This document shows, one piece after another, positions 9,001 to 61,938 of a stretch of DNA of 64,000 bases (position 1 is the stretch's first letter; every line of letters begins with the position of its first letter). The notes beneath the pieces were generated by a model. The model searched no databases. It was not told the origin of the DNA and saw only the letters and a program-made list of their open reading frames with translations. This DNA is from Ascidia mentula (Eukaryota; Chordata; Ascidiacea; Phlebobranchia; Ascidiidae), in assembly GCA_947561715.1 (NCBI GenBank), contig OX387197.1:22780266-22844265 (forward strand), read 5' to 3'. A program made the position numbers and the translations under genes.

Positions 9001-12000
9001 AGCGACTTGAAGTTTTGCACACAAATATAAGATGCCACTACAAAACGAGCAATGGAAACTAAATTGGCATCTGTCCTTTAGAATTTTATTGCCTGCCGAA
9101 AACGCATGTTTAAAACTATGGTGGCTAAGGTTCGGCGGATTTAACTAAATTTGACAGTTGTAAGCCTGTGATTCAAACATTTTTCTTTCAAGCGACTTGA
9201 AGTTTTGCACACAAATATATGATGCCACCACAAAGCGAGCAATGAAAACTAAATTGGCGTCTGTCGTTCAGAATTTTATTGCTTGCCAAAAACGCATGTT
9301 TGAAACTATGGTGGCTAAGGTTCGGCGGATTTAACCAAATTTGACAGTTGTAAGCCTGTGATTTCAACATTTTTATATCAAGCGACTTGAAATTTTGCAC
9401 ACAAATATTAGATGCCACTACAAAACGAGCAATGAAAACCAAATTGGCGTATGTACTCTGGTTTTTTATTGCTGCACGAAAACGCATGTTACAAACAATG
9501 GTCGCTAAGGTCGTGCGGAATTAACTAATTTTGAGAATTCCCGCCTGCAATATACACAATTTTAAATCAAAAGACATGAAATTTTCCACACAAATACTAG
9601 GTGCCACTGCAAAACGAGTAGTGAAAACCAAATTGGACTATGTACTCTAGTTTCTTGTTGCTTGCCAAAAACGCATGTTTGAAACTATGGTGGCTAAGTT
9701 TCGGCGGATTTAACTAAATTTGACAGTTGTCCGCCTGTGATTTCAACATTTTTATATCAAGCGACTTGAAATTTTGCACACAAATATAAGATGCCACTAC
9801 GAAACGAGCAATGAAAACTGAATTGGCGTCTGTCCTTTAGAATTTTATTGCTTGCCGAAAACGCATGTTTGAAACTATGGTGGCCAAGATTCGGCGGATT
9901 TAACTAAATTTGACAGTTGTAAGCCTGTGATTTCAACATTTTTATATCAAGCGACTTGAAATTTTGCACACAAATATTAGATGCCACTACAAAACGAGCA
10001 ATGAAGACCAAATTGGCGTATGTACTCTAGTTTTTTATTGCTGCTCGAAAACGCTTGTTACAAACAATGGTCGCTAAGGTCGTGCAGAATTGACTAATTT
10101 TGAGAATTCCCGCCTGCAATATACACAATTTTAAATCAAGAGACATGATATTTTCCACACAAATACTAGGTGCCACTGCAAAACGAGCAATGGAAACTAA
10201 ATTGGCATCTGTCCTTTAGAATTTTATTGCCTGCCGAAAACGCATGTTTAAAACTATGGTGGCTTAGGTTCGGCGGATTTAACTAAATTTGACAGTTGTA
10301 AGCCTGTGATTCAAACATTTTTCTTTCAAGCGACTTGAAGTTTTGCACACAAATATATGATGCCACCACAAAGCGAGCAATGAAAACTAAATTGGCGTCT
10401 GTCGTTCAGAATTTTATTGCTTGCCGAAAACGCATGTTTGAAACTATGGTGGCCAAGATTCGGCGGATTTAACTAAATTTGACAGTTGTAAGCCTGTGAT
10501 TTCAACATTTTTATATCAAGCAACTTGAAATTTTGCACACAAATATTAGATGCCACTACAAAACGAGCAATGAAAACCAAATCGGCGTATGTACTCTAGT
10601 TTTTTGTTGCTGCGCGAAAACGCATGTTACAAACAATGGTCGCTAAGGTCGTGCGGAATTAACTAATTTTGAGAATTCCCGCCTGCAATATACACAATTT
10701 TAAATCAAAAGACATGAAATTTTCCACACAAATACTAGGTGCCACTGCAAAACGAGTAGTGAAAACCAAATTGGACTATGTACTCTAGTTTTTTGTTGCT
10801 TGCCAAAAACGCATGTTTGAAACTATGGTGGCTAAGTTTCGGCGGATTTAACTAAATTTGACAGTTGTCCGCCTGTGATTTCAACATTTTTATATCAAGC
10901 GACTTGAAATTTTGCACACAAATATAAGATGCCACTACGAAACGAGCAATGAAAACTGAATTGGCGTCTGTCCTTCAGAATTTTATTGCTTGCCGAAAAC
11001 GCATGTTTGAAACTATTGTGGCCAAGATTCGGCGGATTTAACTAAATTTGACAGTTGTAAGCCTGTGATTTCAACATTTTTATATCAAGCGACTTGAAAT
11101 TTTGCACACAAATATTAGATGCCACTACAAAACGAGCAATGAAAACCAAATCGGCGTATGTACTCTAGCTTTTTGTTACTGCGCGAAAACGCATGTTACA
11201 AACAATGGTCGCTAAGGTCGTGCGGAATTAACTAATTTTGAGAATTCCCGCCTGCAATATACACAATTTTAAATCAAAAGACATGAAATTTTCCACACAA
11301 ATACTAGGTGCCACTGCAAAACGAGTAGTGAAAACCAAATTGGACTATGTACTCTAGTTTTTTGTTGCTTGCCGAAAACGCATGTTTGAAACTATGGTGG
11401 CTAATGTTCCGCGGATTTAACTAAACTTGACAGTTGTCCGTCCGTGATTTCAACATTTTTATATCAAGCGACTTGAAATTTTGCACACAAATATTAGATG
11501 CCACTACAAAACGAGCAATGAAAACTAAATTGGCGTCTGTCCTTTAAAATTTTATTTGTTTGAAACTATGGTGGCTAAGATTCGGCGGATTTAACTAAAT
11601 TTGGAAGTTGTAAGCCTGTGATTCCAACATTTTTCTTTCAAGCGATTTGAAGTTTTGCACACAAATATTAGATGCCACTACAAAACGAGCAATGAAAACC
11701 AAATTGGCATCTGTCCTTCAGAATTTTATTGCCTGCCGAAAACGCATGTTTGAAACTATGGTGGCTAAGGTTCGGCGGATTTAACTAAATTTGACAGTTG
11801 TAAGCCTGTGATTCCAACATTTTTCTTTCAAGCGACTTGAAGTTTTGCACACAAATATAAGATGCCACTACAAAACGAGCAATGGAAACTAAATTGGCAT
11901 CTGTCCTTTAGAATTTTATTGCCTGCCGAAAACGCATGTTTAAAACTATGGTGGCTAAGGTTCGGCGGATTTAACTAAATTTGACAGTTGTAAGCCTGTG

Positions 12001-15000
12001 ATTCAAACATTTTTCTTTCAAGCGACTTGAAGTTTTGCACACAAATATATGATGCCACCACAAAACGAGCAATGAAAACTAAATTGGCGTCTGTCGTTCA
12101 GAATTTTATTGCTTGCCAAAAACGCATGTTTAAAACTATGGTGGCTAAGGTTCGGCGGATTTAACCAAATTTGACAGTTGTAAGCCTGTGATTTCAACAT
12201 TTTTATATCAAGCGACTTGCAATTTTGCACACAAATATTAGATGCCACTACAAAACGAGCAATGAAAACCAAATTGGCGTATGTACTCTGGTTTTTTATT
12301 GCTGCACGAAAACGCATGTTACAAACAATGGTCGCTAAGGTCGTGCGGAATTAACTAATTTTGAGAATTCCCGCCTGCAATATACACAATTTTAAATCAA
12401 AAGACATGAAATTTTCCACACAAATACTAGGTGCCACTGCAAAACGAGTAGTGAAAACCAAATTGGACTATGTACTCTAGTTTTTTGTTGCTTGCCAAAA
12501 ACGCATGTTTGAAACTATGGTGGCTAAGTTTCGGCGGATTTAACTAAATTTGACAGTTGTCCGCCTGTGATTTCAACATTTTTATATCAAGCGACTTGAA
12601 ATTTTGCACACAAATATAAGATGCCACTACAAAACGAGCAATGGAAACTAAATTGGCATCTGTCCTTTAGAATTTTATTGCCTGCCGAAAACGCATGTTT
12701 AAAACTATGGTGGCTAAGGTTCGGCGGATTTAACTAAATTTGACAGTTGTAAGCCTGTGATTCAAACATTTTTCTTTCAAGCGACTTGAAGTTTTGCACA
12801 CAAATATTAGATGCCACTACAAAACGAGCAATGAAAACCAAATCGGCGTATGTACTCTAGCTTTTTGTTACTGCGCGAAAACGCATGTTACAAACAATGG
12901 TCGCTAAGGTCGTGCGGAATTAACTAATTTTGAGAATTCCCGCCTGCAATATACACAATTTTAAATCAAGAGACATGAAATTTTCCACACAAATACTAGG
13001 TGCCACTGCAAAACGAGTAATGAAAACCAAATTGGACTATGTCCTCTAGTTTTTTATTGCTTGCAGAAAACGCATGTTTGAAACTATGGTGGCTAATGTT
13101 CGGCGGATTTAACTAAACTTGACAGTTGTCCGTCCGTGATTTCAACATTTTTATATCAAGCGACTTGAAATTTTGCACACAAATATTAGATGCCACTACA
13201 AAACGAGCAATGAAAACTAAATTGGCGTCTGTCCTTTAAAATTTTATTTGTTTGAAACTATGGTGGCTAAGATTCGGCGGATTTAACTAAATTTGGAAGT
13301 TGTAAGCCTGTGATTCCAACATTTTTCTTTCAAGCGATTTGAAGTTTTGCACACAAATATTAGATGCCACTACAAAACGAGCAATGAAAACCAAATTGGC
13401 ATCTGTCCTTCAGAATTTTATTGCCTGCCGAAAACGCATGTTTGAAACTATGGTGGCTAAGGTTCGGCGGATTTAACTAAATTTGACAGTTGTAAGCCTG
13501 TGATTCCAACATTTTTCTTTCAAGCGACTTGAAGTTTTGCACACAAATATAAGATGCCACTACAAAACGAGCAATGGAAACTAAATTGGCATCTGTCCTT
13601 TAGAATTTTATTGCCTGCCGAAAACGCATGTTTAAAACTATGGTGGCTAAGGTTCGGCGGATTTAACTAAATTTGACAGTTGTAAGCCTGTGATTCAAAC
13701 ATTTTTCTTTCAAGCGACTTGAAGTTTTGCACACAAATATATGATGCCACCACAAAACGAGCAATGAAAACTAAATTGGCGTCTGTCGTTCAGAATTTTA
13801 TTGCTTGCCAAAAACGCATGTTTAAAACTATGGTGGCTAAGGTTCGTCGGATTTAACCAAATTTGACAGTTGTAAGCCTGTGATTTCAACATTTTTATAT
13901 CAAGCGACTTGAAATTTTGCACACAAATATTAGATGCCACTACAAAACGAGCAATGAAAACCAAATTGGCGTATGTACTCTGGTTTTTTATTGCTGCACG
14001 AAAACGCATGTTACAAACAATGGTCGCTAAGGTCGTGCGGAATTAACTAATTTTGAGAATTCCCGCCTGCAATATACACAATTTTAAATCAAAAGACATG
14101 AAATTTTCCACACAAATACTAGGTGCCACTGCAAAACGAGTAGTGAAAACCAAATTGGACTATGTACTCTAGTTTTTTGTTGCTTGCCAAAAACGCATGT
14201 TTGAAACTATGGTGGCTAAGTTTCGGCGGATTTAACTAAATTTGACAGTTGTCCGCCTGTGATTTCAACATTTTTATATCAAGCGACTTGAAATTTTGCA
14301 CACAAATATAAGATGCCACTACAAAACGAGCAATGGAAACTAAATTGGCATCTGTCCTTTAGAATTTTATTGCCTGCCGAAAACGCATGTTTAAAACTAT
14401 GGTGGCTAAGGTTCGGCGGATTTAACTAAATTTGACAGTTGTAAGCCTGTGATTCAAACATTTTTCTTTCAAGCGACTTGAAGTTTTGCACACAAATATT
14501 AGATGCCACTACAAAACGAGCAATGAAAACCAAATCGGCGTATGTACTCTAGCTTTTTGTTACTGCGCGAAAACGCATGTTACAAACAATGGTCGCTAAG
14601 GTCGTGCGGAATTAACTAATTTTGAGAATTCCCGCCTGCAATATACACAATTTTAAATCAAGAGACATGAAATTTTCCACACAAATACTAGGTGCCACTG
14701 CAAAACGAGTAATGAAAACCAAATTGGACTATGTCCTCTAGTTTTTTATTGCTTGCAGAAAACGCATGTTTGAAACTATGGTGGCTAAGGTTGGGCGGAT
14801 TTAACTAAATTTGACAGTTGTAAGCCTGTGATTTCAACATTTTTGTATCAAGTGACTTGAAGTTTTGCACACAAGTATTAGATGCAAGTACAAAACGAGC
14901 AATGAAAACCAAATTGGCGTATGTACTCTAGTTCTTTATTGCTGCTCGAAAAGGTTTGTTACAAGCAATGGTCGCTAAGGTCGTGCGGAATTAACTAATT

Positions 15001-18000
15001 TTGAGAATTCCCGCCTGCAATATACACAATTTTAAATCAAGAGACATGAAATTTTCCACACAAATACTAGGTGCCACTGCAAAACGAGTAGTGAAAACCA
15101 AATTGGACTATGTACTCTAGTTTTTTGTTGCTTGCCGAAAACGCATATTTGAAACTATGGTGGCTAATGTTCGGCGGATTTAACTAAACTTGACAGTTGT
15201 CCGTCCGTGATTTCAACATTTTTATATCAAGCGACTTGAAATTTTGCACACAAATATTAGATGCCACTACAAAACGAGCAATGAAAACTAAATTGGCGTC
15301 TGTCCTTTAGAATTTTATTTGTTTGAAACTATGGTGGCTAAGGTTCGGCGGATTTAACTAAATTTGAAAGTTGTAAGCCTGTGATTCCAACATTTTTCTT
15401 TCAAGCGATTTGAAGTTTTGCACACAAATATTAGATGCCACTACAAAACGAGCAATGAAAACCAAATTGGCATCTGTCCTTCAGAATTTTATTGCCTGCC
15501 GAAAACGCATGTTTGAAACTATGGTGGCTAAGGTTCGGCGGATTTAACTAAATTTGACAGTTGTAAGCCTGTGATTCCAACATTTTTCTTTCAAGCGACT
15601 TGAAGTTTTGCACACAAATATAAGATGCCACTACAAAACGAGCAATGGAAACTAAATTGGCATCTGTCCTTTAGAATTTTATTGCCTGCCGAAAACGCAT
15701 GTTTAAAACTATGGTGGCTAAGGTTCGGCGGATTTAACTAAATTTGACAGTTGTAAGCCTGTGATTCAAACATTTTTCTTTCAAGCGACTTGAAGTTTTG
15801 CACACAAATATATGATGCCACCACAAAACGAGCAATGAAAACTAAATTGGCGTCTGTCGTTCAGAATTTTATTGCTTGCCAAAAACGCATGTTTAAAACT
15901 ATGGTGGCTAAGGTTCGGCGGATTTAACCAAATTTGACAGTTGTAAGCCTGTGATTTCAACATTTTTATATCAAGCGACTTGAAATTTTGCACACAAATA
16001 TTAGATGCCACTACAAAACGAGCAATGAAAACCAAATTGGCGTATGTACTCTGGTTTTTTATTGCTGCACGAAAACGCATGTTACAAACAATGGTCGCTA
16101 AGGTTGTGCGGAATTAACTAATTTTGAGAATTCCCGCCTGCAATATACACAATTTTAAATCAAAAGACATGAAATTTTCCACACAAATACTAGGTGCCAC
16201 TGCAAAACGAGTAGTTAAAACCAAATTGGACTATGTACTCTAGTTTCTTGTTGCTTGCCAAAAACGCATGTTTGAAACTATGGTGGCTAAGTTTCGGCGG
16301 ATTTAACTAAATTTGACAGTTGTCCGCCTGTGATTTCAACATTTTTATATCAAGCGACTTGAAATTTTGAACACAAATATTAGATGCCACTACGAAACGA
16401 GCAATGAAAACTAAATTGGCGTCTGTCCTTTAGAATTTTATTGCTTGCCGAAAACGCATGTTTGAAACTATGGTGGCCAAGATTCGGCGGATTTAACTAA
16501 ATTTGACAGTTGTAAGCCTGTGATTTCAACATTTTTATATCAAGCGACTTGAAATTTTGCACACAAATATTAGATGCCACTACAAAACGAGCAATGAAAA
16601 CCAAATCGGCGTATGTACTCTAGCTTTTTGTTACTGCGCGAAAACGCATGTTACAAACAATGGTCGCTAAGGTCGTGCGGAATTAACTAATTTTGAGAAT
16701 TCCCGCCTGCAATATACACAATTTTAAATCAAGAGACATGAAATTTTCCACACAAATACTAGGTGCCACTGCAAAACGAGTAATGAAAACCAAATTGGAC
16801 TATGTCCTCTAGTTTTTTATTGCTTGCAGAAAACGCATGTTTGAAACTATGGTGGCTAAGGTTGGGCGGATTTAACTAAATTTGACAGTTGTAAGCCTGT
16901 GATTTCAACATTTTTGTATCAAGTGACTTGAAGTTTTGCACACAAGTATTAGATGCAAGTACAAAACGAGCAATGAAAACCAAATTGGCGTATGTACTCT
17001 AGTTTTTTATTGCTGCTCGAAAACGTTTGTTACAAGCAATGGTCGCTAAGGTCGTGCGGAATTAACTAATTTTGAGAATTCCCGCCTGCAATATACACAA
17101 TTTTAAATCAAGAGACATGAAATTTTCCACACAAATACTAGGTGCCACTGCAAAACGAGTAGTGAAAACCAAATTGGACTATGTACTCTAGTTTTTTGTT
17201 GCTTGCCGAAAACGCATATTTGAAACTATGGTGGCTAAGGTCGGGCGGATTTAACTAAATTTGACAGTTGTCCGCCTGTGGTTTCCACATTTTTATATCA
17301 AGCAACTTGAAATTTTGCACACAAATATTAGATGCCAGTACAAAAGGAGTAATGGAAACTAAATTGGCGTATACTCTAGTTTTTTATTACTGCACGAAAA
17401 CGCATATTTGAAACTATGGTGGCTAATGTTCGGCGGATTTAACTAAACTTGACAGTTGTCCGTCCGTGATTTCAACATTTTTATATCAAGCGACTTGAAA
17501 TTTTGCACACAAATATTAGATGCCACTACAAAACGAGCAATGAAAACTAAATTGGCGTCTGTCCTTTAGAATTTTATTTGTTTGAAACTATGGTGGCTAA
17601 GGTTCGGCGGATTTAACTAAATTTGAAAGTTGTAAGCCTGTGATTCCAACATTTTTCTTTCAAGCGATTTGAAGTTTTGCACACAAATATTAGATGCCAC
17701 TACAAAACGAGCAATGAAAACCAAATTGGCATCTGTCCTTCAGAATTTTATTGCCTGCCGAAAACGCATGTTTGAAACTATGGTGGCTAAGGTTCGGCGG
17801 ATTTAACTAAATTTGACAGTTGTAAGCCTGTGATTCCAACATTTTTCTTTCAAGCGACTTGAAGTTTTGCACACAAATATAAGATGCCACTACAAAACGA
17901 GCAATGGAAACTAAATTGGCATCTGTCCTTTAGAATTTTATTGCCTGCCGAAAACGCATGTTTAAAACTATGGTGGCTAAGGTTCGGCGGATTTAACTAA

Positions 18001-19362
18001 ATTTGACAGTTGTAAGCCTGTGATTCAAACATTTTTCTTTCAAGCGACTTGAAGTTTTGCACACAAATATATGATGCCACCACAAAACGAGCAATGAAAA
18101 CTAAATTGGCGTCTGTCCTTTAGAATTTTATTGCTTGCCGAAAACGCATGTTTGAAACTATGGTGGCAAGGTTCGGCGGATTTAACTAAATTTGACAGTT
18201 GTAAGCCTGTGATTTAAACATTTTTATATCAAGCGACTTGAAGTTTTGCACACAAATATTAGATGCCACTACAAAACGAGAAATGAAAACCAAATTGACG
18301 TATGTCTTTTAGTTTCTTATTGCTGCGCGAAAACGCATGTTACAAACAATGGTCGCTAAGGTCGTGCTGAATTAACTAATTTTGAGAATTCCCGAATGCA
18401 ATATACACAATTTTAAATCAAGAGACCTGAAATTATGCACACAAATACTAGGTGCCACTACAAAACGAGCAATCAAAACAAAATTGGCGTCTGTCCTTCA
18501 GAATTTTATTGCTTGCCGAAAACGCATGTTTGAAACTATTGTGGCAAGGTTCGGCGGATTTAACTAAATTTGACAGTTGTAAGCCTGTGATTTCAACATT
18601 TTTATATCAAGCGGCTTGAAGTTTTGCACACAAATATTAGATGCCACTACAAAACGTGAAATGAAAACCAAATTGACGTATGTCTTTTAGTTTCTTATTG
18701 CTGCGCGAAAACGCATGTTACAAACAATGGTCGCGAAGGTCGTGCGGATTTAACTAATTTTGAGAATTCCCGCCTGCAATATACACAATTTTAAATCAAG
18801 AGACATGAAATTTTCCACACAAATACTAGGTGCCACTGCAAAACGAGTAGTGAAAACCAAATTGGACTATGTACTCTAGTTTTTTGTTGCTTGCCGAAAA
18901 CGCATATTTGAAACTATGGTGGCTAAAGTCGGGCGGATTTAACTAAATTTTGTCCGCCTGTGATTTCAACATTTTTATATCAAGCGACTTGAAATTTTGC
19001 ACACAAATATTAGATGCCACTACAAAACGAACAATGAAAACTAAATTGGCGTCTGTCCTTTAGAATTTTATTGCTTGCCGAAAACGCATGTTTGAAACTA
19101 TATGGTGGCTAAGGTTGGGCGGATTTAACTAAATTTGACAGTTGTCCGCCTGTGGTTTCCACATTTTTATATCAAGCAACTTGAAATTTTGCACACAAAT
19201 ACTAGGTGCCACTGCAAAACGGGCAATAAAAACCAAATTGGCGTATGTACTCTAGTTTTTTATTGCTGCGCGAAAACGCATGTTACAAACAATGGTCGCT
19301 AAGGTTGGGCGGAATTAACTAATTTTGAGAATTCCCGCCAGCAATATACACAATTTTAAATC
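1..19362. repeat. 190-bp satellite array with higher-order repeats
   Basis: The whole stretch is a head-to-tail array of a monomer of about 190 bp. The marker GCATGTTTGA, or its variants GCATGTTTAA and GCATGTTACA, recurs at 411, 601, 791 and 981, exactly 190 bp apart. That gives about 102 monomers. Two main monomer types are mixed: one with GTTTGAAACTATGGTGG and one with GTTACAAACAATGGTCG followed by GAGAATTCCCGCC. A shortened monomer lacking about 19 bp recurs at 217, 2098, 8720, 11550, 13242, 15313 and 17572, marking higher-order repeats. Six near-identical minus-strand reading frames of 99 codons or less (for example 2376-2675) arise only because monomers lack stops in one frame; they are not genes. 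The array enters from the left edge and ends in decayed monomers near 19362. Confidence 0.95.
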
Positions 19363-19680
19363 AAGTAATTTCTTCCAATTAAGAGATTCGTAAAAAATGT
19401 TGGTGCAGCTAACACTTTTGGTAACGAGATCCAATTGATATACTTTACACCATGTATGAAAAATTCGCATCTAATGCACAAAAAAATATGGTAAAAAATT
19501 TTTTGTTACAGCCAATTTAACGATATATTTCACTTCAAAAAATTTTGTTACGACATACCAGAAATTTATCAAAATTTTCGTTCCGAAACGAAATTGTTCA
19601 ATTTGGAACGAAATTTTGTTACTCAGAACGGTTTTGCTAACGGTATTTTAGAGTGAATGGAAAATTGCATTATGCCCCAT
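19363..19680. other. Satellite-to-minisatellite transition, no gene seen
   Basis: AT-rich sequence following the last decayed satellite monomer. From about 19575 it carries degenerate GTTCCGAAACGAAAT-like words that foreshadow the 20-bp minisatellite to the right. No coding signal is visible. Confidence 0.6.
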
Positions 19681-20935
19681 TACCGTCTAAAAAGTCTATC
19701 CGAGGAACGAAAATATGTTCCAACATCAAAAATTATGTTCTCCGAAACGAAAATTAGGTTCGGGCAAAAAAAATTCAGTTCCTGAAACGGTAATTTTGTT
19801 CCGGGAACGAAAATTCTGTTCAAGCAAAAAATATTTCCTTCCAGTATCGAAAATTCTGTTCCCCTAACGAAACTTATGTTCCAGTAACGAAATTTCTCTT
19901 CCAGTAAAAAAATTCTGTTCCTGTAACGAAAATTCTGTTCCAAGATCAAAAAGTCACTTTTTTGACCGACATTTAGGTCGCGTATCAACAATTTTCTTGA
20001 AAGAACGACAATTGTGTCCATGGATCGAAAAAGTACCTTCGACGGAAATGTAATTATTCCTCACTGTACGATAATTATATTACAAAAACAAAATTTCTGT
20101 TCCAGTAACGAAAATTCCGTTCCCGTGACCAAAATTCTGTTCCAGTAACGAAAATTCTGTTCCAGTAACGAAAATTCCGTTCCCGTAAGGAAATTCCGTT
20201 CCCGTAACTAAAATTCTGTTCCAGTAACGAAAATTCTGTTCCAAGATCAAAAAGTCACTTTTTTGAACGACATTTAGGTCGCGTATCAACAATTTTCTTG
20301 AAAGAACGACAATTGTGTCCATGGATCGAAAAAGTACCTTCGACGGAAATATAATTATTCCTCACAGTACGATAATTATATTACAAAAACAAAATTTCTG
20401 TTCCAGTAACAAAAATTCTGTCCCAGTAACGAAAATTTTGTTCCCGTAACGAAAATTCCGTTACCGTAACGAAAATTCTGTTCCAGTAACGAAAATTCCA
20501 TTCCCGTAACTAAAATTCTGTTTCAGTAACGAAAATTCTGTTCCCGCAACGAAAATTCCGTTCCCGTAACGAAAATTCTGTTCCAGTAACGAAAATTCCG
20601 TTCCCGTGACTAAAATTCTGTTCCAGGATCAAAAAGTCACTTTATGAACGACATTTAGGTCGCGTATCAACAATTTTCTTGAAAGAACGACAATTGTGTC
20701 CTTGGATCGAAAAGGTACCTTCAACGGGAATGTAATTATTCCTCATAGTACGATAATTATGTTCCAAAAACGAAATTTCCCGTAACTAAAATTCTGTTCC
20801 AGTAACGAAAATTCTGTTCCCGTAACGAAAATTCCGTTCCCGTAACGAAAATTCCGTTCCCGTAACTAAAATTCTGTTCCAGTGACGAAAATTCTGTTCC
20901 AGTAACGAAAATTCCGTTCCCGAGAGTCAAAAACC
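19681..20935. repeat. Composite 20-bp minisatellite
   Basis: Tandem 20-bp units of the form TGTTCCAGTAACGAAAATTC or CGTTCCCGTAACGAAAATTC. The arrays are broken by a longer unique-like block that starts GATCAAAAAGTCACTTT and includes GTCGCGTATCAACAA and GTACGATAATTAT. This block occurs three times, near 19942, 20243 and 20628, so a larger unit of about 300-385 bp is itself repeated. Minus-strand reading frames such as 20080-20322 translate only this repeat (recurring FVTGTEF) and are rejected as genes. Confidence 0.9.
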
Positions 20936-22789: not shown

Positions 22790-23202
22790 AAGCGATAAAA
22801 CACAATTTTAGCTACATATCCGACAGAAACACCATTTACACAAACATTTTTGACCAAAGTAAGTCAAATACTTTAGGTGAAAAAGACCTATAAAAATTAG
22901 ACACGTTATTCGTTGGCATTGTGGTTGGTGTGATCATTGTGCTCGTCTTATCTTTGGTTTGCAACGTTGTGTGTTTCGTTGTTATTTGGAAACTGCACAA
23001 AAAGACAAAAATGTTGCCTCCAGTTGGATAAATATAATAATAGAGTAACACAAACTTTCATTTAAAGCAATGCAGAATTTGTGACAGGAGCAAATGTTGC
23101 TCAAGAGCCGAATGAAACGAGACTCCCATCAAACCTAGAACTCAACCGAGATACGAAAACGCGCGAACATAAATTTTTGGACATGATTTTTGGACAAACA
23201 GC

Positions 23203-23255
23203 AGCTGCACTGATGAGACCTTTTAGGTCGAAACAGTGGCCATCTGTCTGCAGCT
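23203..23255 (+). ncRNA. Type I hammerhead ribozyme, intact
   Basis: All parts of a minimal hammerhead are present. Stem I is AGCTGCA (23203-23209) pairing perfectly with TGCAGCT (23249-23255). The core CTGATGA is at 23210-23216. Stem II is GACCT/AGGTC with a TTT loop (23217-23229), followed by GAAA (23230-23233). Stem III is ACAG/CTGT (23233-23236 with 23244-23247) and C at position 17 is 23248. The expected self-cleavage is after 23248. The ends lie in stem I, so it is type I, the form known from short animal retroelements and satellites. Activity is inferred from the fold. Confidence 0.9.
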
Positions 23256-23485
23256 TATACACAATTCATATTATTGGCTCCACATTGCTTATCATATGAT
23301 TATTGTGGCACGGGCCTGACGGCATTATTGGTTGAGGTTTGCTTGGCCATAGTGTTTCCACCTTGTTTTCTTTGTAAGGTTGCACGTAGTTTGGTGCCCA
23401 ACGGATGACGGTGATTGTATAGTCACCACAAAGTGGAAGTCTTTGCTTGGTCGTTTGGTCAGCAGAATCGTCTTATAGTCACACC

Positions 23486-23538
23486 AGCTGCACTGATCAG
23501 ACCTTTTAGGTCGAAACAGTGGCCATCTGTCTTCAGCT
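23486..23538 (+). ncRNA. Hammerhead ribozyme, core-mutated copy
   Basis: Same layout as the copy 283 bp upstream, but the core reads CTGATCA instead of CTGATGA, losing the conserved G8 that takes part in catalysis. The 3' strand of stem I is TTCAGCT, losing one pair. Stems II and III are intact. It is predicted to be inactive or very weak. Confidence 0.85.
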
Positions 23539-23730
23539 TATACACAATACATATTATTGGCACCACATTGCTTATAAATTTATTCATCCGTAATAAAATG
23601 TTTTATTAACTACATGTAACAGATTGTTCTTTTGTTTAAAGAAAGCGGTGAAGCAGTAAATGCAGCTTCGTACAGCAATGTGAACCCAACAAATGAGAAG
23701 TTGGAATCTTCCTGCGTTGTTTTATCGTAA

Positions 23731-24425: not shown

Positions 24426-24931
24426 GAGAGAAAAGGATTTTCTTAGCAGTCGATAAAAGTTTGTTTATTTCTGTTTTAATTATGTCAGGATTTAAAAAAC
24501 CATAGACTTTGGCGTAAAGTATTGTTAGGAATTATCCTACCGTAGTTACACTTTACACAACATTAAACTGCAGCTTCAAGAAATGAGTCAAATTTCTAGG
24601 GCCTACGAATGCAAACAGCTTTATTTCAATGTTATGCTAGTCACTACTTGCGCCCTCTTGTAACAGCGTTTCGATGTTTGTCATGTTTACCCTTCAAAGG
24701 AAATGTTTAAAACTATTGGTAACCTAATTTTATTTGTGGTTAAGAGGCTTAATTCAATAATCAATAATGTTGAATTGTTCCTACGTCTCCGGACAAACCT
24801 GGTACAAATCTGGTGAATACGAATATATAATAGTCTACGATGTTGCAAGTAATCATGCTGGAGCCGTGACTGGTTGCGCTGCGCAAAATGCTCTTTTGGC
24901 AAATGTGAAGACAAACAACATATTTGATTTC

Positions 24932-25109
24932 TGTTGTTCGGTACCTAGTATAGGGTACCCTGCAGATCGACGTTGACCGAAAGGTACCACAAAGTGGAGA
25001 CTAGTGTGCCTGCTAGTGTGAAAGCTAGCACAGTGCCACACAACAGCTGCACTGATGAGACCTTACAGGTCGAAACAGTGCGTGTACACACCCTGTCTGC
25101 AGCTTTGCA
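24932..25109 (+). mobile_element. Hammerhead element (subfamily 2) inside exon 1 of locus B
   Basis: A 178-bp insertion interrupts coding exon 1 and is flanked by a 12-bp duplication ATATTTGATTTC (24920-24931 and 25110-25121). The inserted DNA shares ACCACAAAGTGGA with the longer element and ends with the ribozyme followed by TTTGCA. The duplication length and the 3' ribozyme point to LINE-type copying of an RNA, as for SINEs. Confidence 0.88.
25045..25104 (+). ncRNA. Type I hammerhead ribozyme, long stem III form
   Basis: Stem I AGCTGCA/TGCAGCT is perfect (25045-25051, 25098-25104). The core CTGATGA follows, stem II is GACCT/AGGTC with loop TAC, then GAAA. Stem III starts ACAG/CTGT and can extend through the inserted TGCGTGTACACACC (GTG with CAC around a TACA loop). 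The cleavable C is 25097. All conserved core positions are kept, so it should be active. The longer stem III distinguishes it from the 53-nt copies. Confidence 0.87.
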
Positions 25110-25739
25110 ATATTTGATTTCCTTGTTGGAAAAATTTCGAATCCAACATGTTTGTTGCTGTAAAAAACTTTTCAATTGGTTTAAATTTTGCTTGAAAAAG
25201 AAACAAGTTCTTGCAATGCATTTAGAAGTACCATATTCGTTGAACATCGGTAAATTTTGCTGGAAAAAAACAAGTTCTGTTAATGCTTTCAGGAACACCA
25301 TATTCATTTTACGTCGGTGCTACGAGAATACCACCCCCGCCCGATCACGTGTTTCAGTGGACAGATGGAACAAGTGTTAATGTTGAAAGTAATGAGTGGT
25401 ATGGTCATAACGAACCAAACAACTCTGGAGGAAATGAGGATTGTGTGATAATGGGTTGAATTTATGAACTTGATTCAACATATGCATGGAGAGATGTTCC
25501 CTGTTCATATTCATCAAGATATGTTTGTCAAAGAAACATTGCAGGTTGAAAATGTTTTGTTGCTTTAAACTTATTAAAAACGGATACTTTTGGAATGGTG
25601 CACATGGTGTTCCACTATATATTTAAACAGGCTATTCCTTACACGATTATTGTGTTCCAGCTTTTGAAACGAAGAACCTTATAACCACAACATATCAAAA
25701 AACCGCCCAAACTGTTGTTGGTAAGTACAACAATACATC

Positions 25740-27539: not shown

Positions 27540-27631
27540 TGTGCACTGATGAGACCTTTTAGGTCGAAACAGTAGCCATTTCTCTGCAGCTTATACACAA
27601 TTCATATTATTCGCTCCACATTCCTTATCAT
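27540..27631 (+). mobile_element. 92-bp hammerhead element, 5' end at the ribozyme
   Basis: A 92-bp insertion sits just after the stop of locus B, flanked by the 9-bp duplication ATTTTTGGT (27531-27539 and 27632-27640). The empty site is preserved after locus G (about 58174). The element begins at the ribozyme's stem I and ends CCTTATCAT. The ribozyme (27542-27591) keeps CTGATGA, stem II and GAAA, but the 3' strand of stem III is changed (TTCT for CTGT) and stem I is cut to TGCA, so it is predicted inactive. Confidence 0.85.
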
Positions 27632-27640
27632 ATTTTTGGT

Positions 27641-29315: not shown

Positions 29316-30087
29316 AAAAACGGAAGTGACGTAGTAAAACGAGGCGCTTTACTGCGCCTGAACTGGCGATCGGTCGGGCGGTCTAGAAGGGGTTGCCTGA
29401 CGGAGTTGAGGCGGAGTATACTCGGCCCGACGGATTTTAGTTTTGTTGATGATGCAAGTCTGCAGGTGTTAAACTGGTCGTAAAAATTATGTCAACGCAG
29501 CGTTAAGTGCAGATGTTGGTTTTGTTGACGTTGCAAGTCTGCAAATGTTAAAGTAGTCGTAAAAGTCAACGCAGCATAAAGGCAGATAAGTCAACGCAGC
29601 ATAAAGGCAGATGTTCGCTAATATTTCTTTGCAAAAGGGTATATATAGGATATATTATTTATCCAGAAATAGTTCAGAAAGATGGCGAAAGTAGAAGGTG
29701 TTGTAAAAAAGTGGACTGACGCGCAAACCAACGATTTAATTGTTATTGCAAAGCAACTAAATTTGGTAGCGCAAACGGATAGCAAATCCAGAAGAAATAA
29801 AGATGTTATGCAGCAGGCAGCTGAAGAAATGAGAAAAAAGGGACACAATTTTGACATGTGTGAAGTATTTTTATTTAAATCGAAATTGTTTCCCACAATA
29901 GGCTCACTTGCACAACTGCAGGTTAACATTTTCAGACATCAAGTTCGACGGAAGTGGCGGCTACTTAAATCAAAGTATAACAAAATAAAAGGGGATTTAA
30001 ACAGATCAGGTGCTTCATCCAAAGGTTTATACTTGTCGCCGCACAACACATGTATATACTAAAAAAGGCCCAAAGCGTATAACTATA

Positions 30088-31877: not shown

Positions 31878-34049
31878 TTACAAATTACATAAATAATCTG
31901 CAATGGTGGTGCGAACTTGACTGTCCACTGCAGCATCTGGTTGTGAAGTGGACCCATGGGTCAGAGTAATTTCAGTATCCCTTGGGACAGGTGTTTGGGC
32001 CTCTTCGCACATGTTATGCATTATGCAACATGCTGCAATAATGAAAGGAGCTTCTTTAATGTCAACATCTAGTTGTCGCTTGAATATTCGCCAACGCGCC
32101 TTAAGCCTCCCAAAAGCATTCTCAACCACAATACGAACACTGCTATGGTGATATTAAATGTCTCCTGTTTGTCAGTTAAGCTAGACCCAGTGTACGGCCT
32201 CATGAGCCATTGTAACGTAATTTTACGTTACATAGCAACGATTGCATTCATGGAAATATGAACTATATGGTCACATAACAGCCAGTTTCGTCAACAACGT
32301 CCGGAATCTCTTCATGGGTTTTTGTCTTAAGGCATTTTAGGTAGCGTCTTGTCCAGCATCTCATTTCAAAATGTATAGCAACGGTTGCTTTCTCACGTGA
32401 TTTGATCTCGTTACTAGTTTCCACGCAACAGCTGTGTTTTTATGTGATTTGATTGGCCAGCTTAAATGTGTCGCCTTAGAGAAGTCCTTCATTGTTTTGT
32501 GTGAGAGTGCGTCTTTTGTTAACTGTTCGCTGACCGTTAGTCCTTGGATCGCCCTTCTTTTCAAAATCCTTCGTTCGCTTTGTTTCTCTCCGGTTTTAAA
32601 TAATGAAACTTTCCGTGTGCCTTTAGCTGAGGTGGAGCGGGGCAGTTCAGTGGTACTGTGCTCTCCTCAGTTCGTAAATTCACTTAGTTTGGCGTTGGTA
32701 TAATTGCGCATGTTAATTTCGTATCCAAAATTGTTCGTGGTAAATAAATATTGGTGTAGTGTTTGCATCGAGAGTTAATTAAGTCAGGTTAGGAAAACAC
32801 AACAATTAGAACTCACGTGCGATCTAATGTCAAATGCGCTAATCAAATAGGATTTCCATCAATCATAAATAATATTGTTAAGAGCCGATTCGAGACTCAT
32901 ATTTGACATAACGGAGGCGCAACACCATGGCAGCAAGGGACATGCAGAATCTCCAACAATCATCAAAGGAATCTGTACATTGTTGATGGTAATGGTGCCC
33001 TATTAAACACAAACATAACAACTTAAATTGGTTGAAGCATGGTGATATTAAAAACTTTGTACTTTTGGTAGGTTGGATGCATTTTTGTACAATTCAATTC
33101 AATTCATTTTATTTCTCGCAAACGTCAGCGAATACGCACAAAACATATATTAAATGTAATGAAATATAAACAGAATCATACAATCTTCACCTATACTGAT
33201 TATCAACCACTGCTTGAAGCACAAGAGATGGGAACCTTTTTCTGTTTATAAAATCTCTCATTCCATGTTTTGGTGGTTTTACATGTATATGGCATCCATC
33301 AATTGCCCCAAATACTTGTGGAAATCCAGACTTTTGATGATTCTGATTTGCTATTATTTGGGCTTCAGTGGATTTAGGAAGATAAATGAACTGTTTGTGT
33401 TTCTTGCAAAGAGCCTTACAAAACCTACAAGAAAAAAATTTTAGCTGCAATATATTTTCCTGCATTTGCTCAGTACCTGTGCAAACACCGGTGAACGGAT
33501 GTCTTGTGTATTCCGAAGGCAACTCCAACAACTCTAAATTCAGCTGCTTAAGCTAATTTATACAAAGCAACTACAATCCTTTTTTCAAGGGGTATTGGTG
33601 CCCTAACTGATCTATCATCTACAAATGACAATGTTTTTAAGTTTATAGAAAGTTCACAAAAAATCTAGTTCAAAATGTATAACCTGGTTTCAAATCTTCA
33701 CCAAGCAGCAAAATAAACTGTTGAAAAGTAGACTTTCTAATCCGGAAATGTTTTAGCCAATCGGAGTCATCGAAGTTTTTTCCAACAGTGTCCCACCAAT
33801 CAGTAGATCTGTATTATTATTAAGATAACATAAACTGTACTCATAGAAAGGAAGAAATATTCCTTCAAACCTTTGAAGCATCCAAAACCTTCTTTTTTTA
33901 ACTGTAGCCTGGCCACTGAGGTCATGTGCAATGAGCATACTTGTTGCCTGAAGGCATGTAGTTTGGTTTTGCACCATAACAATCAAAACAGCTAATTGTA
34001 ATGCAAAAACAGTTAACAGAACTAAATCTTGTGATGTTTGAGGTTCCAT
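31878..34049 (-). pseudogene. PIF/Harbinger DDE transposase, decayed
   Basis: Minus-strand pieces in order: an N-terminal segment from MEPQTSQDL (34049); the conserved DDSDWLKHFRIRKSTF region (near 33770-33680); EKRIVVALYKLA ending in an in-frame stop (near 33550) before EFRVVGVAFGIHKTSVHR; the first Asp in FGAIDGCHIHVKPP (33531-33187); the second Asp in MIVGDSACPLLPW (near 32950); and the Glu in VVENAFGRLKARWR (32129 onward), ending with a CIMHNMCEE motif. All three DDE residues are visible, but there is a stop, a frameshift near 32140 and an inserted solo LTR. An intron between 33190 and 33000 is likely. The protein would have cut and pasted the element. Confidence 0.85.
32211..32924. mobile_element. 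Solo LTR inserted in the Harbinger transposase
   Basis: 714 bp with TGTAACG at one end and GCAACA at the other, flanked by the four-base duplication CCAT (32207-32210, 32925-32928). Removing it and one CCAT rejoins the conserved transposase words PLLPW and LMRPY, which places the ends precisely. It has no internal coding region and is an old retroelement footprint, younger than the Harbinger copy it sits in. The superfamily (a four-base duplication fits Ty3/gypsy or retroviral kin) is not certain. Confidence 0.85.
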
Positions 34050-35418: not shown

Positions 35419-37724
35419 ATGATTTTTCAAGCTGCTTTTATTCTGGTATTCTTGACTTGTTCCTTCGTCTCTGGACAAACGTGGTATAAATCTGGTGAAT
35501 ACGAGTATCTTATAGTCTATGATGTTGCAAGTAATCAAGCTGGAGCCGTGGCAGGTTGCGCTTCGAAAAATGCTCTGTTGGCAAATGTGAAGACAAACAA
35601 CATATTTAATTTCCTTGTTGGAAAGATTTCAAATCTGACGGGTTTGTTGTTAGATGAAACTTTTCAATTTGTTTCCGGTATTTTTGCCTGGGCACAATAT
35701 ATTTTTTTAATATAATTTCGGTAAAAATTTTGCTTTAAAAAGAAACAAGTTATGTTAATGCTTTCAGGAACCCCATATTCATTTTACATCGGTGCTACGA
35801 GAATACCAACCTCGCACGATCACGTGTTTCAGTGGACAGATGGAACAAGTGTTGATGTCAACAGGAATGAGTGGTTCGGTGATCAGGAACCAAGCAACGC
35901 AGGGGGAAATGAAGATTGTGTGATAATGGGTTGGATTTATGAACTTGATTCAACATTCGGATGGAGAGATGTTTCCTGTTCATATTCATTAAGATATATT
36001 TGCCAAAGAAGCATTGCAGGTTAAAAAATTGATGTTCTGTTGCTTATAATCTAAGTAAAACAGATACTTTTGGAATGGTGTAAACTGTAAATGGTGTTTC
36101 GCTGTCTATTTAAACAGACTATACCTTACATAACTATTGTATTTCAGTTTCTGCAACGAGTAACCTACCTACAACAAATCAAGAAACGACCATAACTGTT
36201 GTTGGTAAGTGGAACAATACATCAGTAGGGATGGTGAAAGCTCTGCAATAGTTGTATGAAATAATAAAGCGCGTGCTATAGGAGGGCAAAGCGGTTGGTT
36301 TGTTGTTTAAACGTCAGTAAATGTTACGTCATGGTTTACGAACCATCAGTAATGTGTGTTTTTGTATGCTACTGCTCTGTGAAACTATTTTCACTAAAGT
36401 TTTTAGTTATTTTCAGCCACGACAAACACGCAATTCACACTGACCTCTGGAAACAAATTAATAAATTCAAAAACCGCAGAAACAAGCAGGATGCCGCGAG
36501 GAGGAAGTAGTTATAAGAATTTCACAGAAACTTACGTCACTGTTTCTGTAAAACAATAAGGGGCAGAAAATTTGAAAATGTTTTTATTGGGCAAGAACAT
36601 AGTTGAAATTGTCAACGCAAAAAAACACTCAGTTTTGTAAATTATTGTTCTAACTAAAGAAATTTCAACATCTGGTACATACTATTGGGAATAATTTCAG
36701 GCACACAAGCTTTTTTCATTGTGTTTTATAAATTCGTAGGTTTTATGTCAAGACAGGAACTATAATGTTGCGTGTAAACATAATGCATGGGCATACAAAG
36801 CATTTATGAATAATAGTAAATACACTACGCTTTTTTTGCAGCCACGACAAGCGTGCATTTAACATTGAACAACTCAGAGAAATTAGCGACAACTGAAGAA
36901 ATCATTGTGGTGTCGGAAAAGGGTAAGTAGGAATCAAAGTATTAACCCGTCGCTCAAAGAACGTTTGGATATGAAATCTAGATCTACAGAAATACAATGG
37001 GTTAACTTGTCACTAAATGCTCTTTGTTCGCTTTTGCTTGTGTGGTGCTCTGACGTAATTCGAAGCAATAGAAAACACCAGTTTATATGTTCAAAAGTAT
37101 TTTTTTAAAACTATGTAAGATATAAATTTCACAGAAACTTTCCTGGGTTCATCGTCAGCAACATCAAGAGATATTGTATCCACAAATGGGATAAGTTTCC
37201 CACAGGAACATGTCCGAAAGATTAACCAAAGTAAGTAAAATACTTAAGGTGAAAAAGGCCTATGCAAATTAGACATGGTATTCGCAGGCGTTATAATACG
37301 GTTGTGATCAGTGTACTCCTGGTATTATCTTTGGTTTGCAACGTTGTCTGTTTCGTTGTTATTTGGAAACTGCACACAAAGACAAAAAAGGTGCCTTCAG
37401 TCGGGTAAGCTAGGGTAATGTTTGATATGAGAAATATACAAGTAACACAAACTTTCTTTAAAAGCAATAGAGAATTTGTGACAAGTGCTCACGTTGCTCA
37501 AGAGCCGAACGAAACCAACTACGAAATTCCAATCAACGCTCAACCGAGATACGAAAACGCACAAATAGATATCGTACATGACATAAAGATGTGTATGCTC
37601 GCCTGAATATTTGTTTTATTACCTCTTAATGTGTAAACAAGGTGCCGAAGCAGTGAAAGCAGCTACGTACAGCAACATGGATGCAGAAGGGAAATTTGAG
37701 TCTGCCTACGTCGCTTTATCGTAA
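35419..37724 (+). pseudogene. C-type lectin receptor locus C, nearly complete
   Basis: All nine exons are present: 35419-35641, 35768-36019, 36148-36204, 36417-about 36509, 36842-36922, 37135-37230, 37288-37404, 37465-37568, 37642-37724. Exon 1 starts MIFQAAFILVFLTCSFVSG, a good signal peptide; the TTG-initiated extension upstream is ignored. The CTLD has its four core cysteines, EPS in place of EPN, and WRD. Exons 3-6 give a Thr-rich stalk. Three defects: exon 4 ends at GAAGT where the others have GC or GT; exon 7 carries two extra bases (117 against 115) that stop the frame before the membrane span; exon 8 has lost its donor (ATATCG for GTATCG). If spliced anyway it would yield only a soluble lectin plus stalk, so it is either a pseudogene or a secreted form. 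Confidence 0.8.
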
Positions 37725-60371: not shown

Positions 60372-60968
60372 TTATTTGCTGTTTTGGCAAATGTGAAGAC
60401 ATACTACATGTTTAATTTCCTTCTAGTAACAATTCCAAACCCAACAGGATGGTTTATATGTGCAAAAAAGCCATATTATTGCAAAGCTGCAGATTGGGTG
60501 TGTACACGCACTGTTTGGACCTGTAAGGATGGTTTATGTTTATGTTAAAAATAAAAATATGCGTACTTATTTTGTGTTAAACATATTTGCTTTTTATAAA
60601 CAATGTATCTTTTTCAGCTGTATCCAACTCGTTATACATCGGTGCCACAATAGTACCAACAGAAGCAGTTCACTATTTTCAGTGGTCAGATGGAACAAGA
60701 GTTGGTATAGCACAATGGAATGCAGGGGAACCAAACAACCATAGAGGAAATGAAGATTGTGTGATAATGGGAAAATGGATAATGGACATCTGTATGCAGC
60801 TTATACACAATAAATTTATTTATTCGTAAATAAATATTTTATTACCTTTGTAATAATATATCTTTGCTTTTTTGTTTAAAGAAAGCGGTGAAGCAGTAAA
60901 TGCAGCTTCGTACAGCAACATGAACCCAAGAAATGAAAAATTGAAACCTGCCTACGTCGTTTACCGTA
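60372..60968 (+). pseudogene. Lectin receptor locus H, fragmentary
   Basis: Part of exon 1 (about 60372-60447, AVLANVKTYYMFNF), exon 2 (60618-60771) and exon 9 (60882-60968). Exon 2 is the most divergent in the array (VSNSLYIGATIVPTEAVHYF) and keeps EPNNHRGNEDC, but ends before the last two cysteines. A deletion carrying a hammerhead-element scrap (GGACATCTGTATGCAGC) joins it to exon 9, whose tail reads ESGEAVNAASYSNMNP and then runs past the usual stop (VVYRK for VVLS). A minus-strand hammerhead element lies between exons 1 and 2. Not functional. Confidence 0.75.
60458..60526 (-). mobile_element. 5'-truncated hammerhead element in locus H
   Basis: A 69-bp minus-strand insertion with an 11-bp duplication GGATGGTTTAT (60447-60457, 60527-60537). 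In its own sense it begins inside stem II of the subfamily 2 ribozyme (TTACAGGTC), has CAAAC for GAAAC, keeps the GTGCGTGTACACACC stem III insert and ends with a TTTGCA-containing tail. Truncated and mutated, so inactive. Confidence 0.82.
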
Positions 60969-61669
60969 AATCCTGGACGAAAAAGATTATGATTGTGGAT
61001 AATACACTATATAGCCTAAATATAAATATTTCACAGATTACGCGCCTGTGATAAGGTTAATCTTATTTCGAATGATTCCAAAGTTTCTGGTAATAATGTA
61101 ACCAAAACCATTATATAGTATGTAACGAAACAAGTGTGAAACAATGTTACACTTCTGTGCTTTATTTTGAATGTCATGCGCAAACCTCAGCGCTGTTTCA
61201 GTTTTATTCCAAGTATTGGTTTAGTTTAAATATGTTGGTAAATGCTAATTTTATTTTTTGAGACATTTTGCCATCACGTTATGATTCTGTGGTTATCGGG
61301 TAGGCGGACGTTGGGTCACACGACATATAAACAATAGATTAATAGTTCCCTTGTTTATGCAAGTACTTTGCGACACATACAAGTGTAGAGGTTTTTCTCG
61401 ATGTCTAACGAAGAGGATAAATTAATATTCACAACCAGTGAATATATTTTCCCATTACTGTTTTCGTGTGGTTTGCATTTTATTCTCAATAAACGAGCAA
61501 TCGAGAATACTTCGAGAATCGAGAAAAGTGATCAGCCTCACATAACCCCTGAACATATTTCAAGTATGCAGGACAGGATTAACTTATCATGAGGTATTAG
61601 AAATGACGACACGGGTCAAGCAAATATAACCACGGAGTGCTGAAAATATTGAATAACTACTAATCGTAA
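60969..61669. other. 3' flank of locus H
   Basis: Homologous to the DNA after locus A (AGGATAAATTAATATTCA, TTCTCAATAAACGAGCAA with AATAAA near 61488). No gene seen. Confidence 0.5.
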
Positions 61670-61938
61670 GATAAGCAATGTGGAGCCAATAATATGAATT
61701 GTGTATAAGCTGCAGACAGATGGCCACTGTTTCGACCTAAAAGGTCTCATCAGTGCAGCTGGTGTGACTATAAGACGACTTTGCTGACCAAACGGCCAAG
61801 CAAAGACTTCCATTTTGTGGTGACTATACAATCACCGTCATCCGTTGGGCACCAAACTAGATGCAACCTTACAAAGAAAACAAGGTGGAAACACTATGGC
61901 CAAGCAAAGCGCGACCAATAGTGCCGTTAGGCCCCGAA
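61670..61938 (-). mobile_element. Full-length hammerhead element, minus strand
   Basis: A 269-bp insertion bounded by AATCGTAA (61662-61669) and AATCATAA (61939-61946). The empty site is seen near 24117. In its own sense it starts TTTTCGGGGCCTAACGGC, runs through CTTGGCCATAGTGTTTCC and GGTGCCCAACGGATGACG, carries the ribozyme about 180 bp in, and ends CACATTGCTTATC. It has no reading frame of note. CTTGGCCATAGTG is weakly like a pol III A box, but no convincing B box is seen. Confidence 0.85.
61708..61760 (-). ncRNA. Type I hammerhead ribozyme, intact
   Basis: On the minus strand all 53 nt equal the copy at 23203-23255: stem I AGCTGCA/TGCAGCT, core CTGATGA, stem II GACCT/AGGTC, GAAA, stem III ACAG/CTGT and C17. 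The expected cut follows the base complementary to 61715. Complete identity with a copy 38 kb away, in an element whose body has diverged, suggests recent spread or constraint on the ribozyme. Confidence 0.9.

What the first reader, a model, noticed from the sequence alone, without database searches (positions are those of the whole stretch)
23203..23255. Intact hammerhead ribozyme hidden in a non-coding repeat beside receptor exons
The sequence shows a complete type I hammerhead: perfect 7-bp stem I, CTGATGA core, 5-bp stem II, GAAA, 4-bp stem III and a cleavable C at 23248. An identical copy occurs on the opposite strand at 61708-61760. Hammerheads of this type are known from short animal retroelements and satellites, but the element body here does not match any family I recognise. 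RNA cleavage inside a receptor locus could affect host transcripts that read through it.
Basis: partly seen in the sequence, partly recalled or inferred. Interest (0 to 1): 0.88.

Follow-up and report, generated by a model that had tools for sequence, protein, structure and literature searches.

The report
Sea-squirt retrozyme moved by Penelope machinery
The hammerhead ribozyme belongs to a small mobile RNA element repeated across a sea-squirt genome, and the way its copies sit in the DNA suggests that they were inserted by the enzymes of a larger jumping gene, a Penelope-like element.

Summary
A complete type I hammerhead lies at 23203-23255 (cleavage C at 23248), with an identical one at 61760-61708. 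My descriptor finds three in the window and none in 200 shuffles. Rfam scores it at background.
The host is the ascidian Ascidia mentula: chromosome lengths match, mitochondrial AGR reads as Gly.
The hammerhead is the processing ribozyme of a 285-nt tandem element, a non-LTR metazoan retrozyme; a 290-nt sister family is also in the window. The core occurs 1,549 times in the genome, reversed control 0.
New here: retrozyme insertions carry the integration signature of Penelope-like elements (PLEs). Many are head-to-head double arms with about 12-bp target duplications, one outer end at site A and the other at site B: 18 of 19 family-1 insertions with a target duplication (16 with narrow zones), 7 of 7 independent family-2 events, 18 of 19 autonomous PLE insertions. 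In family 1, units of both arms of one insertion differ by 0.59%, units of different insertions by 2.24%, suggesting one RNA template.
Family-1 copies in the window are old. Self-cleavage, circular RNA and effects on the lectin genes are untested.

The parts
23198..23575 (+). retrozyme family 1, 1.34 units (HHR - body - HHR), 3' end at monomer position 45 (site B)
   Evidence: monomer 235->45, 93.5% identity; no adjacent TSD found
23203..23255 (+). intact type I hammerhead ribozyme; predicted cut after C 23248
   Evidence: sequence; 3 real vs 0 in 200 shuffles
23486..23538 (+). second hammerhead of the same insertion, G8 changed to C (CTGATCA) and one stem-I change; expected inactive
24930..25114 (+). 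retrozyme family 2, single partial copy, 100% identical to the family-2 monomer used (so probably recent), ends at monomer-2 position 12-17 (site A), TSD ATATTTGATTTC at 24920-24931 and 25110-25121
25045..25104 (+). intact family-2 hammerhead (stems I 7, II 5, III 4 bp)
   Evidence: its MFE fold is the hammerhead fold
27542..27633 (+). retrozyme family 1, short old copy about 20 nt after the stop codon of a receptor-like ORF; stem III damaged
   Evidence: (9-nt TSD, end 48-50)
60455..60528 (-). retrozyme family 2 fragment, ends at site B (34-37), TSD AGGATGGTTTAT at 60446-60457 and 60526-60537
60783..60810 (+). 28-nt family 1 fragment
61661..61936 (-). retrozyme family 1, about one unit; no TSD found
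61708..61760 (-). intact hammerhead identical to 23203-23255

Best explanation
A non-LTR retrozyme. Shown by sequence: one type I hammerhead per 285-nt (or 290-nt) unit; insertions with about 12-bp target duplications, often head-to-head double arms; outer ends at two positions downstream of the hammerhead cut (family 1 about +17 and +44; family 2 about +12 and +34), one of each in nearly every double-arm insertion that could be resolved; autonomous PLEs (reverse transcriptase + GIY-YIG) in the same genome with the same three features. Inferred: hammerheads cut a multimeric transcript to monomers, a host ligase closes these into circles, and a PLE protein makes a 12-bp staggered cut in the target. 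Each target 3' end then primes reverse transcription on the circle, one at site A and the other at site B. Each cDNA runs round the circle for a variable distance, and the two cDNA ends are joined head-to-head, often at 2-6 nt of microhomology. The ribozyme's job is unit-length RNA processing for the element; the copies in this window are remnants of such insertions.
For: Tandem array of identical 285-bp units bounded by a TSD (L009). Element maps of 28 loci plus the window (L001 repeats the window, L013 overlaps L008). TSD of 8 nt or more in 41 of 53 element groups, 12 bp the commonest (19 of 41). Reciprocal ends, family 1: 21 head-to-head copies, 19 with TSD; of these 16 have one A and one B end with the zones written into the script after seeing (an end counts if its ambiguity interval overlaps the zone), 18 if zone B is read as 40-60; 0 A/A or B/B; 1 other, L019. 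Family 2: 17 head-to-head copies, 10 with TSD, 9 of these A/B (L071, L077 and L078 copies of one event; L081 needs zone A read as about 5-20) and 1 not (L114, a further copy of the L071 event); 7 of 7 independent events. PLEs: 5 independent double-arm insertions of a 2,870-bp PLE, all with one end in +57-70 and the other in +98-105 and a 12-bp TSD; 14 more from several PLE families, 13 with one end 28-44 bp longer than the other, TSD 12-15 nt. RT and GIY-YIG in 3 of 3 PLE ORFs tested, two of them of one family. Single template: family-1 unit divergence 0.66% within an arm, 0.59% between the two arms of one insertion, 2.24% between insertions. Junction overlap of 2 nt or more in 14 of 25 against 15.5% by simulation. 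Orientation: among the roughly 100 places listed on C1 of 1,549, 11 of 11 opposite-strand neighbours within 1.2 kb are head-to-head (counted by eye). The family-2 hammerhead's MFE is the hammerhead fold. Published parallels: PLE RT starts at two internal RNA sites and both target strands are extended (PMC11167929, parts 1-2 of 4 read); PLE 'tail' at one of the inverted pLTRs (PMC3846280, passages).
Against: No RNA data. Rfam scores the hammerhead at background. For the family-1 53-mer the energy model prefers another fold by 1.4 kcal/mol, and I see no stem-I bulge or large loop II for the usual loop-loop contact. Site A/B regions of the two retrozymes and of four PLE families share no significant sequence (8 comparisons; in the best, 11 of 300 shuffles reach the observed score), so the recognition signal is unknown. 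Copies that break the rule or could not be resolved: family 1 L019, and without TSD L003/L004 (51/264, duplicates) and L028 (four arms); family 2 L114 (B / 270, 8-nt low-complexity TSD), and without TSD L075, L076 (37/36, i.e. B/B), L106-L108 (85/42, one event), L109 (37/231) and L116 (cut by the fetched piece); PLE L102 (65 bp), the single-arm L032 (end at 39), and L050 (cut). Two of the counted family-2 TSDs are only 8 nt (L078, L118). Family 2 does not show the within-insertion homogeneity (1.89%, 1.71%, 1.02%; few data, duplicated loci). Gene conversion could also homogenise units.
Confidence: 0.82

Rival explanations
1. The repeats are a plain satellite that spread by unequal crossing-over or segmental duplication; the hammerhead is a passenger.
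For: Tandem 285-bp units; several loci look like segmental duplicates (L003/L004, L071/L077/L078/L114, L106-L108).
Against: Dispersed copies with target duplications of about 12 bp, recurrent end sites, head-to-head arms, and many separate places on several chromosomes.
Confidence: 0.04
2. They are retroposons of a LINE rather than of a PLE.
For: LINEs can give inverted copies by twin priming and make TSDs (recalled); retrozyme papers name LINEs as candidates (PMC7229834, parts 1-4; PMC11722881, passage).
Against: The A/B one-each ends, 12-bp TSDs and outward-facing 3' ends on both sides match the autonomous PLEs of this genome. No poly-A stretch is seen in the end sequences printed. LINEs of this genome were not examined.
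Confidence: 0.08
3. The retrozymes are solo pLTRs of an unseen autonomous PLE, i.e. the same element with its ORF lost.
For: Four PLE families here carry minimal hammerheads upstream of their A/B sites in the same order (read by eye in the sequences printed); a review proposes that retrozymes arose by reduction of PLEs (PMC11722881, passage).
Against: In 53 PLE pieces searched, family 1 or 2 matches occur in 5 (L048, L058, L081, L082, L101), outside the mapped PLE arms in the four pieces whose arms were mapped (L058 was not mapped). The hammerhead here has a looped 4-bp stem III, the PLE ones a 4-nt palindrome. One search lists 121 GIY-YIG places and only part of them was read.
Confidence: 0.2
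4. The hammerhead at 23203 was kept because it regulates the receptor transcript.
For: It lies on the same strand as the neighbouring exon and is intact, while the HHR 283 bp on is broken.
Against: The same core occurs at 1,549 places; the other intact family-1 hammerhead in the window is on the opposite strand; conservation of the position was not tested.
Confidence: 0.03

Closest known systems
Metazoan non-LTR retrozymes (Cervera and de la Pena 2020, PMC7229834)
   Same: Type I hammerhead, 170-400 nt monomer, tandem dimers to multimers, no ORF, TSD longer than 4 bp, PLEs present in the same genome
   Different: Here double-arm head-to-head insertions with two reciprocal end sites are common; the paper text I read (parts 1-4 of 6) describes tandem repeats and offers PLEs as a candidate from shared hammerheads, tandem copies and co-existence. 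GC 47-49% lies above the '<45%' of its Figure 1C. Canonical loop-loop contact not evident.
Penelope-like elements with pLTR, tail and minimal hammerhead (PMC3846280 passages, PMC11167929 parts 1-2; Cervera 2014 and Lunse 2017 known only from citations and recall)
   Same: Inverted partial copy, tail at one end, TSD, hammerhead upstream of the ends
   Different: Retrozymes encode no protein, and their stem III is a 4-bp hairpin with a loop rather than a 4-nt palindrome; A-B distance about 22-27 bp against about 28-44 bp in the PLEs here
Plant LTR retrozymes (PMC4918200, search listing only)
   Same: Hammerhead-flanked non-coding circRNA element
   Different: Plant ones have type III hammerheads, LTRs and 4-bp TSDs (from PMC7229834 and PMC7761336 passages)

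Membership tests
metazoan non-LTR retrozyme | type I hammerhead, complete core | tested here: met
metazoan non-LTR retrozyme | monomer of 170-400 nt in tandem | tested here: met
   285 and 290 nt; up to 5.5 units in one array
metazoan non-LTR retrozyme | no protein-coding region | tested here: met
   longest ATG ORF on the repeated monomer 46 aa in both families
metazoan non-LTR retrozyme | TSD longer than 4 bp | tested here: met
metazoan non-LTR retrozyme | low GC (<50% in text, <45% in figure legend) | tested here: inconclusive
   47.0% and 48.6%: under 50%, over 45%
metazoan non-LTR retrozyme | absence of LTR, PBS and PPT | not tested
   no dedicated search made
metazoan non-LTR retrozyme | loop 1-loop 2 tertiary contact of canonical type I | tested here: inconclusive
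   3-nt loop II and an unbroken 7-bp stem I seen; no 3D test. Mussel retrozymes also lack most of these nucleotides (PMC7229834)
metazoan non-LTR retrozyme | monomeric linear and circular RNA in tissue | not testable with these tools
   no RNA data
Rfam Hammerhead_1 / Hammerhead_3 / RAGATH-1 models | score above gathering cut-off | tested here: not met
Penelope-like element (autonomous) | RT + GIY-YIG ORF | tested here: not met
   retrozyme units have no ORF over 46 aa; the autonomous PLEs of the genome have the domains
PLE-mobilised element | inverted arm, tail at one end only, TSD as in the resident PLEs | tested here: met
   exceptions listed in the Against line

The most novel reading that the evidence does not exclude
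One circular RNA, held by a PLE protein dimer, is reverse transcribed from both cut strands of the target at once, each strand starting at its own fixed site (one at A, one at B). The double-arm, one-tail structure is thus the rule of PLE-type integration, and retrozymes are its non-coding, circle-templated users.
Probability: 0.5. Interest if true: 0.75.

Novelty: new member of a known kind. Interest (0 to 1): 0.55.

Why it matters
How animal retrozymes get back into DNA is open; PLEs were proposed because both occur together and share hammerheads and tandem copies. Here the insertions themselves carry the PLE signature, including the unusual one-A-one-B end rule, in the same genome as PLEs that do the same. 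That makes the question directly testable with purified PLE protein and a 285-nt RNA circle, and gives a constraint on PLE integration: two start sites used once each per event.

Tried and rejected
Chance hammerhead: rejected. Rfam identification: not reached at any family's cut-off. Sequence similarity between retrozyme and PLE tail regions as a recruitment signal: none significant. Hammerheads with a stem III of 3 bp or more in the 30 PLE loci L029-L058: none found; the PLE hammerheads have a palindromic 4-nt stem III (AGCT or ACGT), seen only on reading the sequence. Circular folds of the monomers are more stable than shuffles (z -3.1 and -2.9) but their MFE does not show the hammerhead fold; not used as evidence. 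Family 1 or 2 as the pLTR of a PLE: not seen in 53 PLE pieces. Literature: searches (listings, plus passages or parts of seven papers: PMC7229834, PMC11167929, PMC3846280, PMC7761336, PMC8704543, PMC11722881, PMC8969392) showed no statement of the one-tail, double-arm structure for retrozymes; Cervera 2014, Lunse 2017 and Craig 2021 are not held (tried by PubMed Central id only), so a statement there cannot be excluded.

Full report
What was checked. The hammerhead at 23203-23255 is exactly as described, including C17 at 23248, and the reverse copy 61760-61708 is identical. A descriptor of the same stem lengths finds three in the window, the third at 25045-25104 belonging to a sister family, and none in 200 dinucleotide shuffles. 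Rfam does not recognise it: nothing at gathering, RAGATH-1 hammerhead 21.5 of 56.3 bits and Hammerhead_3 18.4 of 48.5, Hammerhead_1 nothing above cut-off in the genome search.

Host. The genome handled as G000 has 195.8 Mb in 79 contigs. Its COX1 reads AGR as glycine (18 codons) and TGA as Trp, the ascidian mitochondrial code (that the positions are conserved glycines is recalled). Nine contig lengths seen in the calls (27.92, 19.88, 23.17, 22.72, 22.34, 21.17, 19.87, 19.66, 15.45 Mb) equal the nine chromosomes of Ascidia mentula kaAscMent1.1 to within 0.01 Mb in PMC11109543 (passages). The totals differ a little: the paper gives 197.0 Mb in 95 scaffolds. The window is chromosome 1, 22,780,266-22,844,265.

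The element. Its unit is 285 nt (family 1). L009 holds 5.5 units; the five whole units printed are identical and the array is bounded by a 12-13-nt TSD. Family 2 has a 290-nt unit. In a forced global alignment the two families agree at 52 of 66 columns in the hammerhead region and at 100 of 238 elsewhere; local alignment finds two stretches, the hammerhead region (93% over 42 nt) and one in the body (75% over 57 nt). So the families are related and the hammerhead is their best-kept part. The ribozyme core with any 3-nt loop II occurs at 774 + 775 places, the reversed control at 0. Of the window's copies, 23198-23575 is 1.34 units with one good and one G8-mutated hammerhead, 61661-61936 (minus) is about one unit, 27542-27633 is short and decayed, all about 93% identical to the family-1 unit used; 24930-25114 (100% identical to the family-2 unit used) and 60455-60528 are family 2.

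The integration signature. Many insertions consist of an inverted arm followed by a forward arm, head-to-head. Outer ends fall in two zones downstream of the hammerhead cut. Family 1: 21 head-to-head copies, 19 with a TSD. Of the 19, 16 have one A and one B end under the narrow zones of the script (written; an end counts if its ambiguity interval overlaps the zone), 18 if zone B is read as 40-60 (L015, L020); none is A/A or B/B; L019 deviates. The strength lies in the absence of like pairs, not in the zones. Family 2: 17 head-to-head copies with a TSD; 9 of the 10 are A/B, the tenth (L114) is a copy of the L071 event with a deviating right end. Counting L071, L077, L078 and L114 once, seven of seven independent events have an A/B copy; L081 needs zone A read as about 5-20, and the TSD of L118 is only 8 nt. 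Set aside for lack of a TSD: L003/L004, L028, L075, L076 (B/B), L106-L108, L109, L116. TSDs of at least 8 nt were found for 41 of 53 element groups, 12 bp in 19.

Autonomous PLEs do the same. The GIY-YIG search lists 121 places. A 2,870-bp PLE forms a head-to-head tandem array on C67; its ORF has RT and GIY-YIG. Five independent double-arm insertions of this PLE (L039, L047, L048, L052, the array) have one end in +57-70 and the other in +98-105 from its hammerhead cut and 12-bp TSDs; L040 is the same place as L039, L056 a duplicate of L047, L050 was cut, L032 is a single arm ending at 39. Fourteen further double-arm PLE insertions of several families: 13 have one end 28-44 bp longer, L102 65 bp; TSD 12-15 nt. 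So 18 of 19 resolved.

One template per insertion. In family 1, units differ by 0.66% within an arm, 0.59% between the two arms of an insertion, and 2.24% between insertions (L003, L004, L058, L070, L075 and the window copies were left out; L006 alone shows 13.6% within its arm). L008 shows 0 differences in 1,944 positions compared within arms and 2,246 between arms. This fits both arms being copied from one RNA. Family 2 gave 1.89, 1.71 and 1.02% on few, partly duplicated data and does not support it. Gene conversion remains possible. Arms longer than one unit, although every whole unit carries a hammerhead, suggest a circle as template (inference).

Mechanism and literature. A PLE protein of Anolis cuts and extends both target strands and starts reverse transcription at two internal sites that explain the PLE 'tail' (PMC11167929, parts 1-2 of 4 read). 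[quoted passage not shown] Metazoan retrozymes make circular RNA and PLEs are offered as 'a strong candidate' for their mobilisation from shared hammerheads, tandem copies and co-existence (PMC7229834, parts 1-4 of 6). A curation guide and a plant review repeat that possibility (PMC8969392, PMC11722881, passages). An earlier ascidian genome paper lists nine type I hammerhead loci in Didemnum (PMC8704543, one passage). The searches and the passages read showed no double-arm one-tail structure for retrozymes; key PLE papers are not held.

Limits. No cleavage, RNA or expression data. How the PLE protein would recognise the retrozyme RNA is unknown, as no sequence similarity was found. LINEs of this genome were not examined. 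The receptor-effect idea stays untested.

Noticed in passing
window 1-19371: Satellite of 190-bp units (379-bp higher-order period), about 101 copies; then a 20-60-bp minisatellite region at 19706-20920.
   Followed up: no
window 21800-63600: Cluster of paralogous exons with C-type lectin domains, e.g. 35725-36024, 50297-50581, 60581-60829, and TM and cytoplasmic-type exons by eye; the lectin exon near 25370-25550 has an in-frame stop (read by eye).
   Followed up: partly
window 23066-23299: The frame of the receptor's cytoplasmic-type exon runs on without a stop through the hammerhead to 23299; probably chance.
   Followed up: no
window 40060-41443: Remnant with Integrase_H2C2 and RT_RNaseH domains in 40060-40926, of Gypsy type by recall.
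   Followed up: no
window 29673-30062 and 31878-33552: Myb/SANT-like ORF and, on the other strand, ORFs that look like a Harbinger transposase by recall (no Pfam match for 33187-33552).
   Followed up: no
G000:C67 6133.7-6147.2 kb (L041-L045): Head-to-head tandem array of an autonomous PLE with identical 2,870-bp units and open 892-aa frames.
   Followed up: partly
PLE loci (sequences printed): Four PLE families each have, by eye, a minimal hammerhead with a palindromic 4-nt stem III (AGCT or ACGT) and differing but paired stems I and II; site A lies within what looks like a stem-loop in each.
   Followed up: partly
L081 6281-6340, L082 116-170, one search list: Further hammerhead variants (loop II GAC, AAC, TTC, TAT) point to more retrozyme subfamilies.
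   Followed up: no
L048 499-729: An old family-1-like copy (70-86% identical) about 300 bp from a PLE insertion.
   Followed up: no
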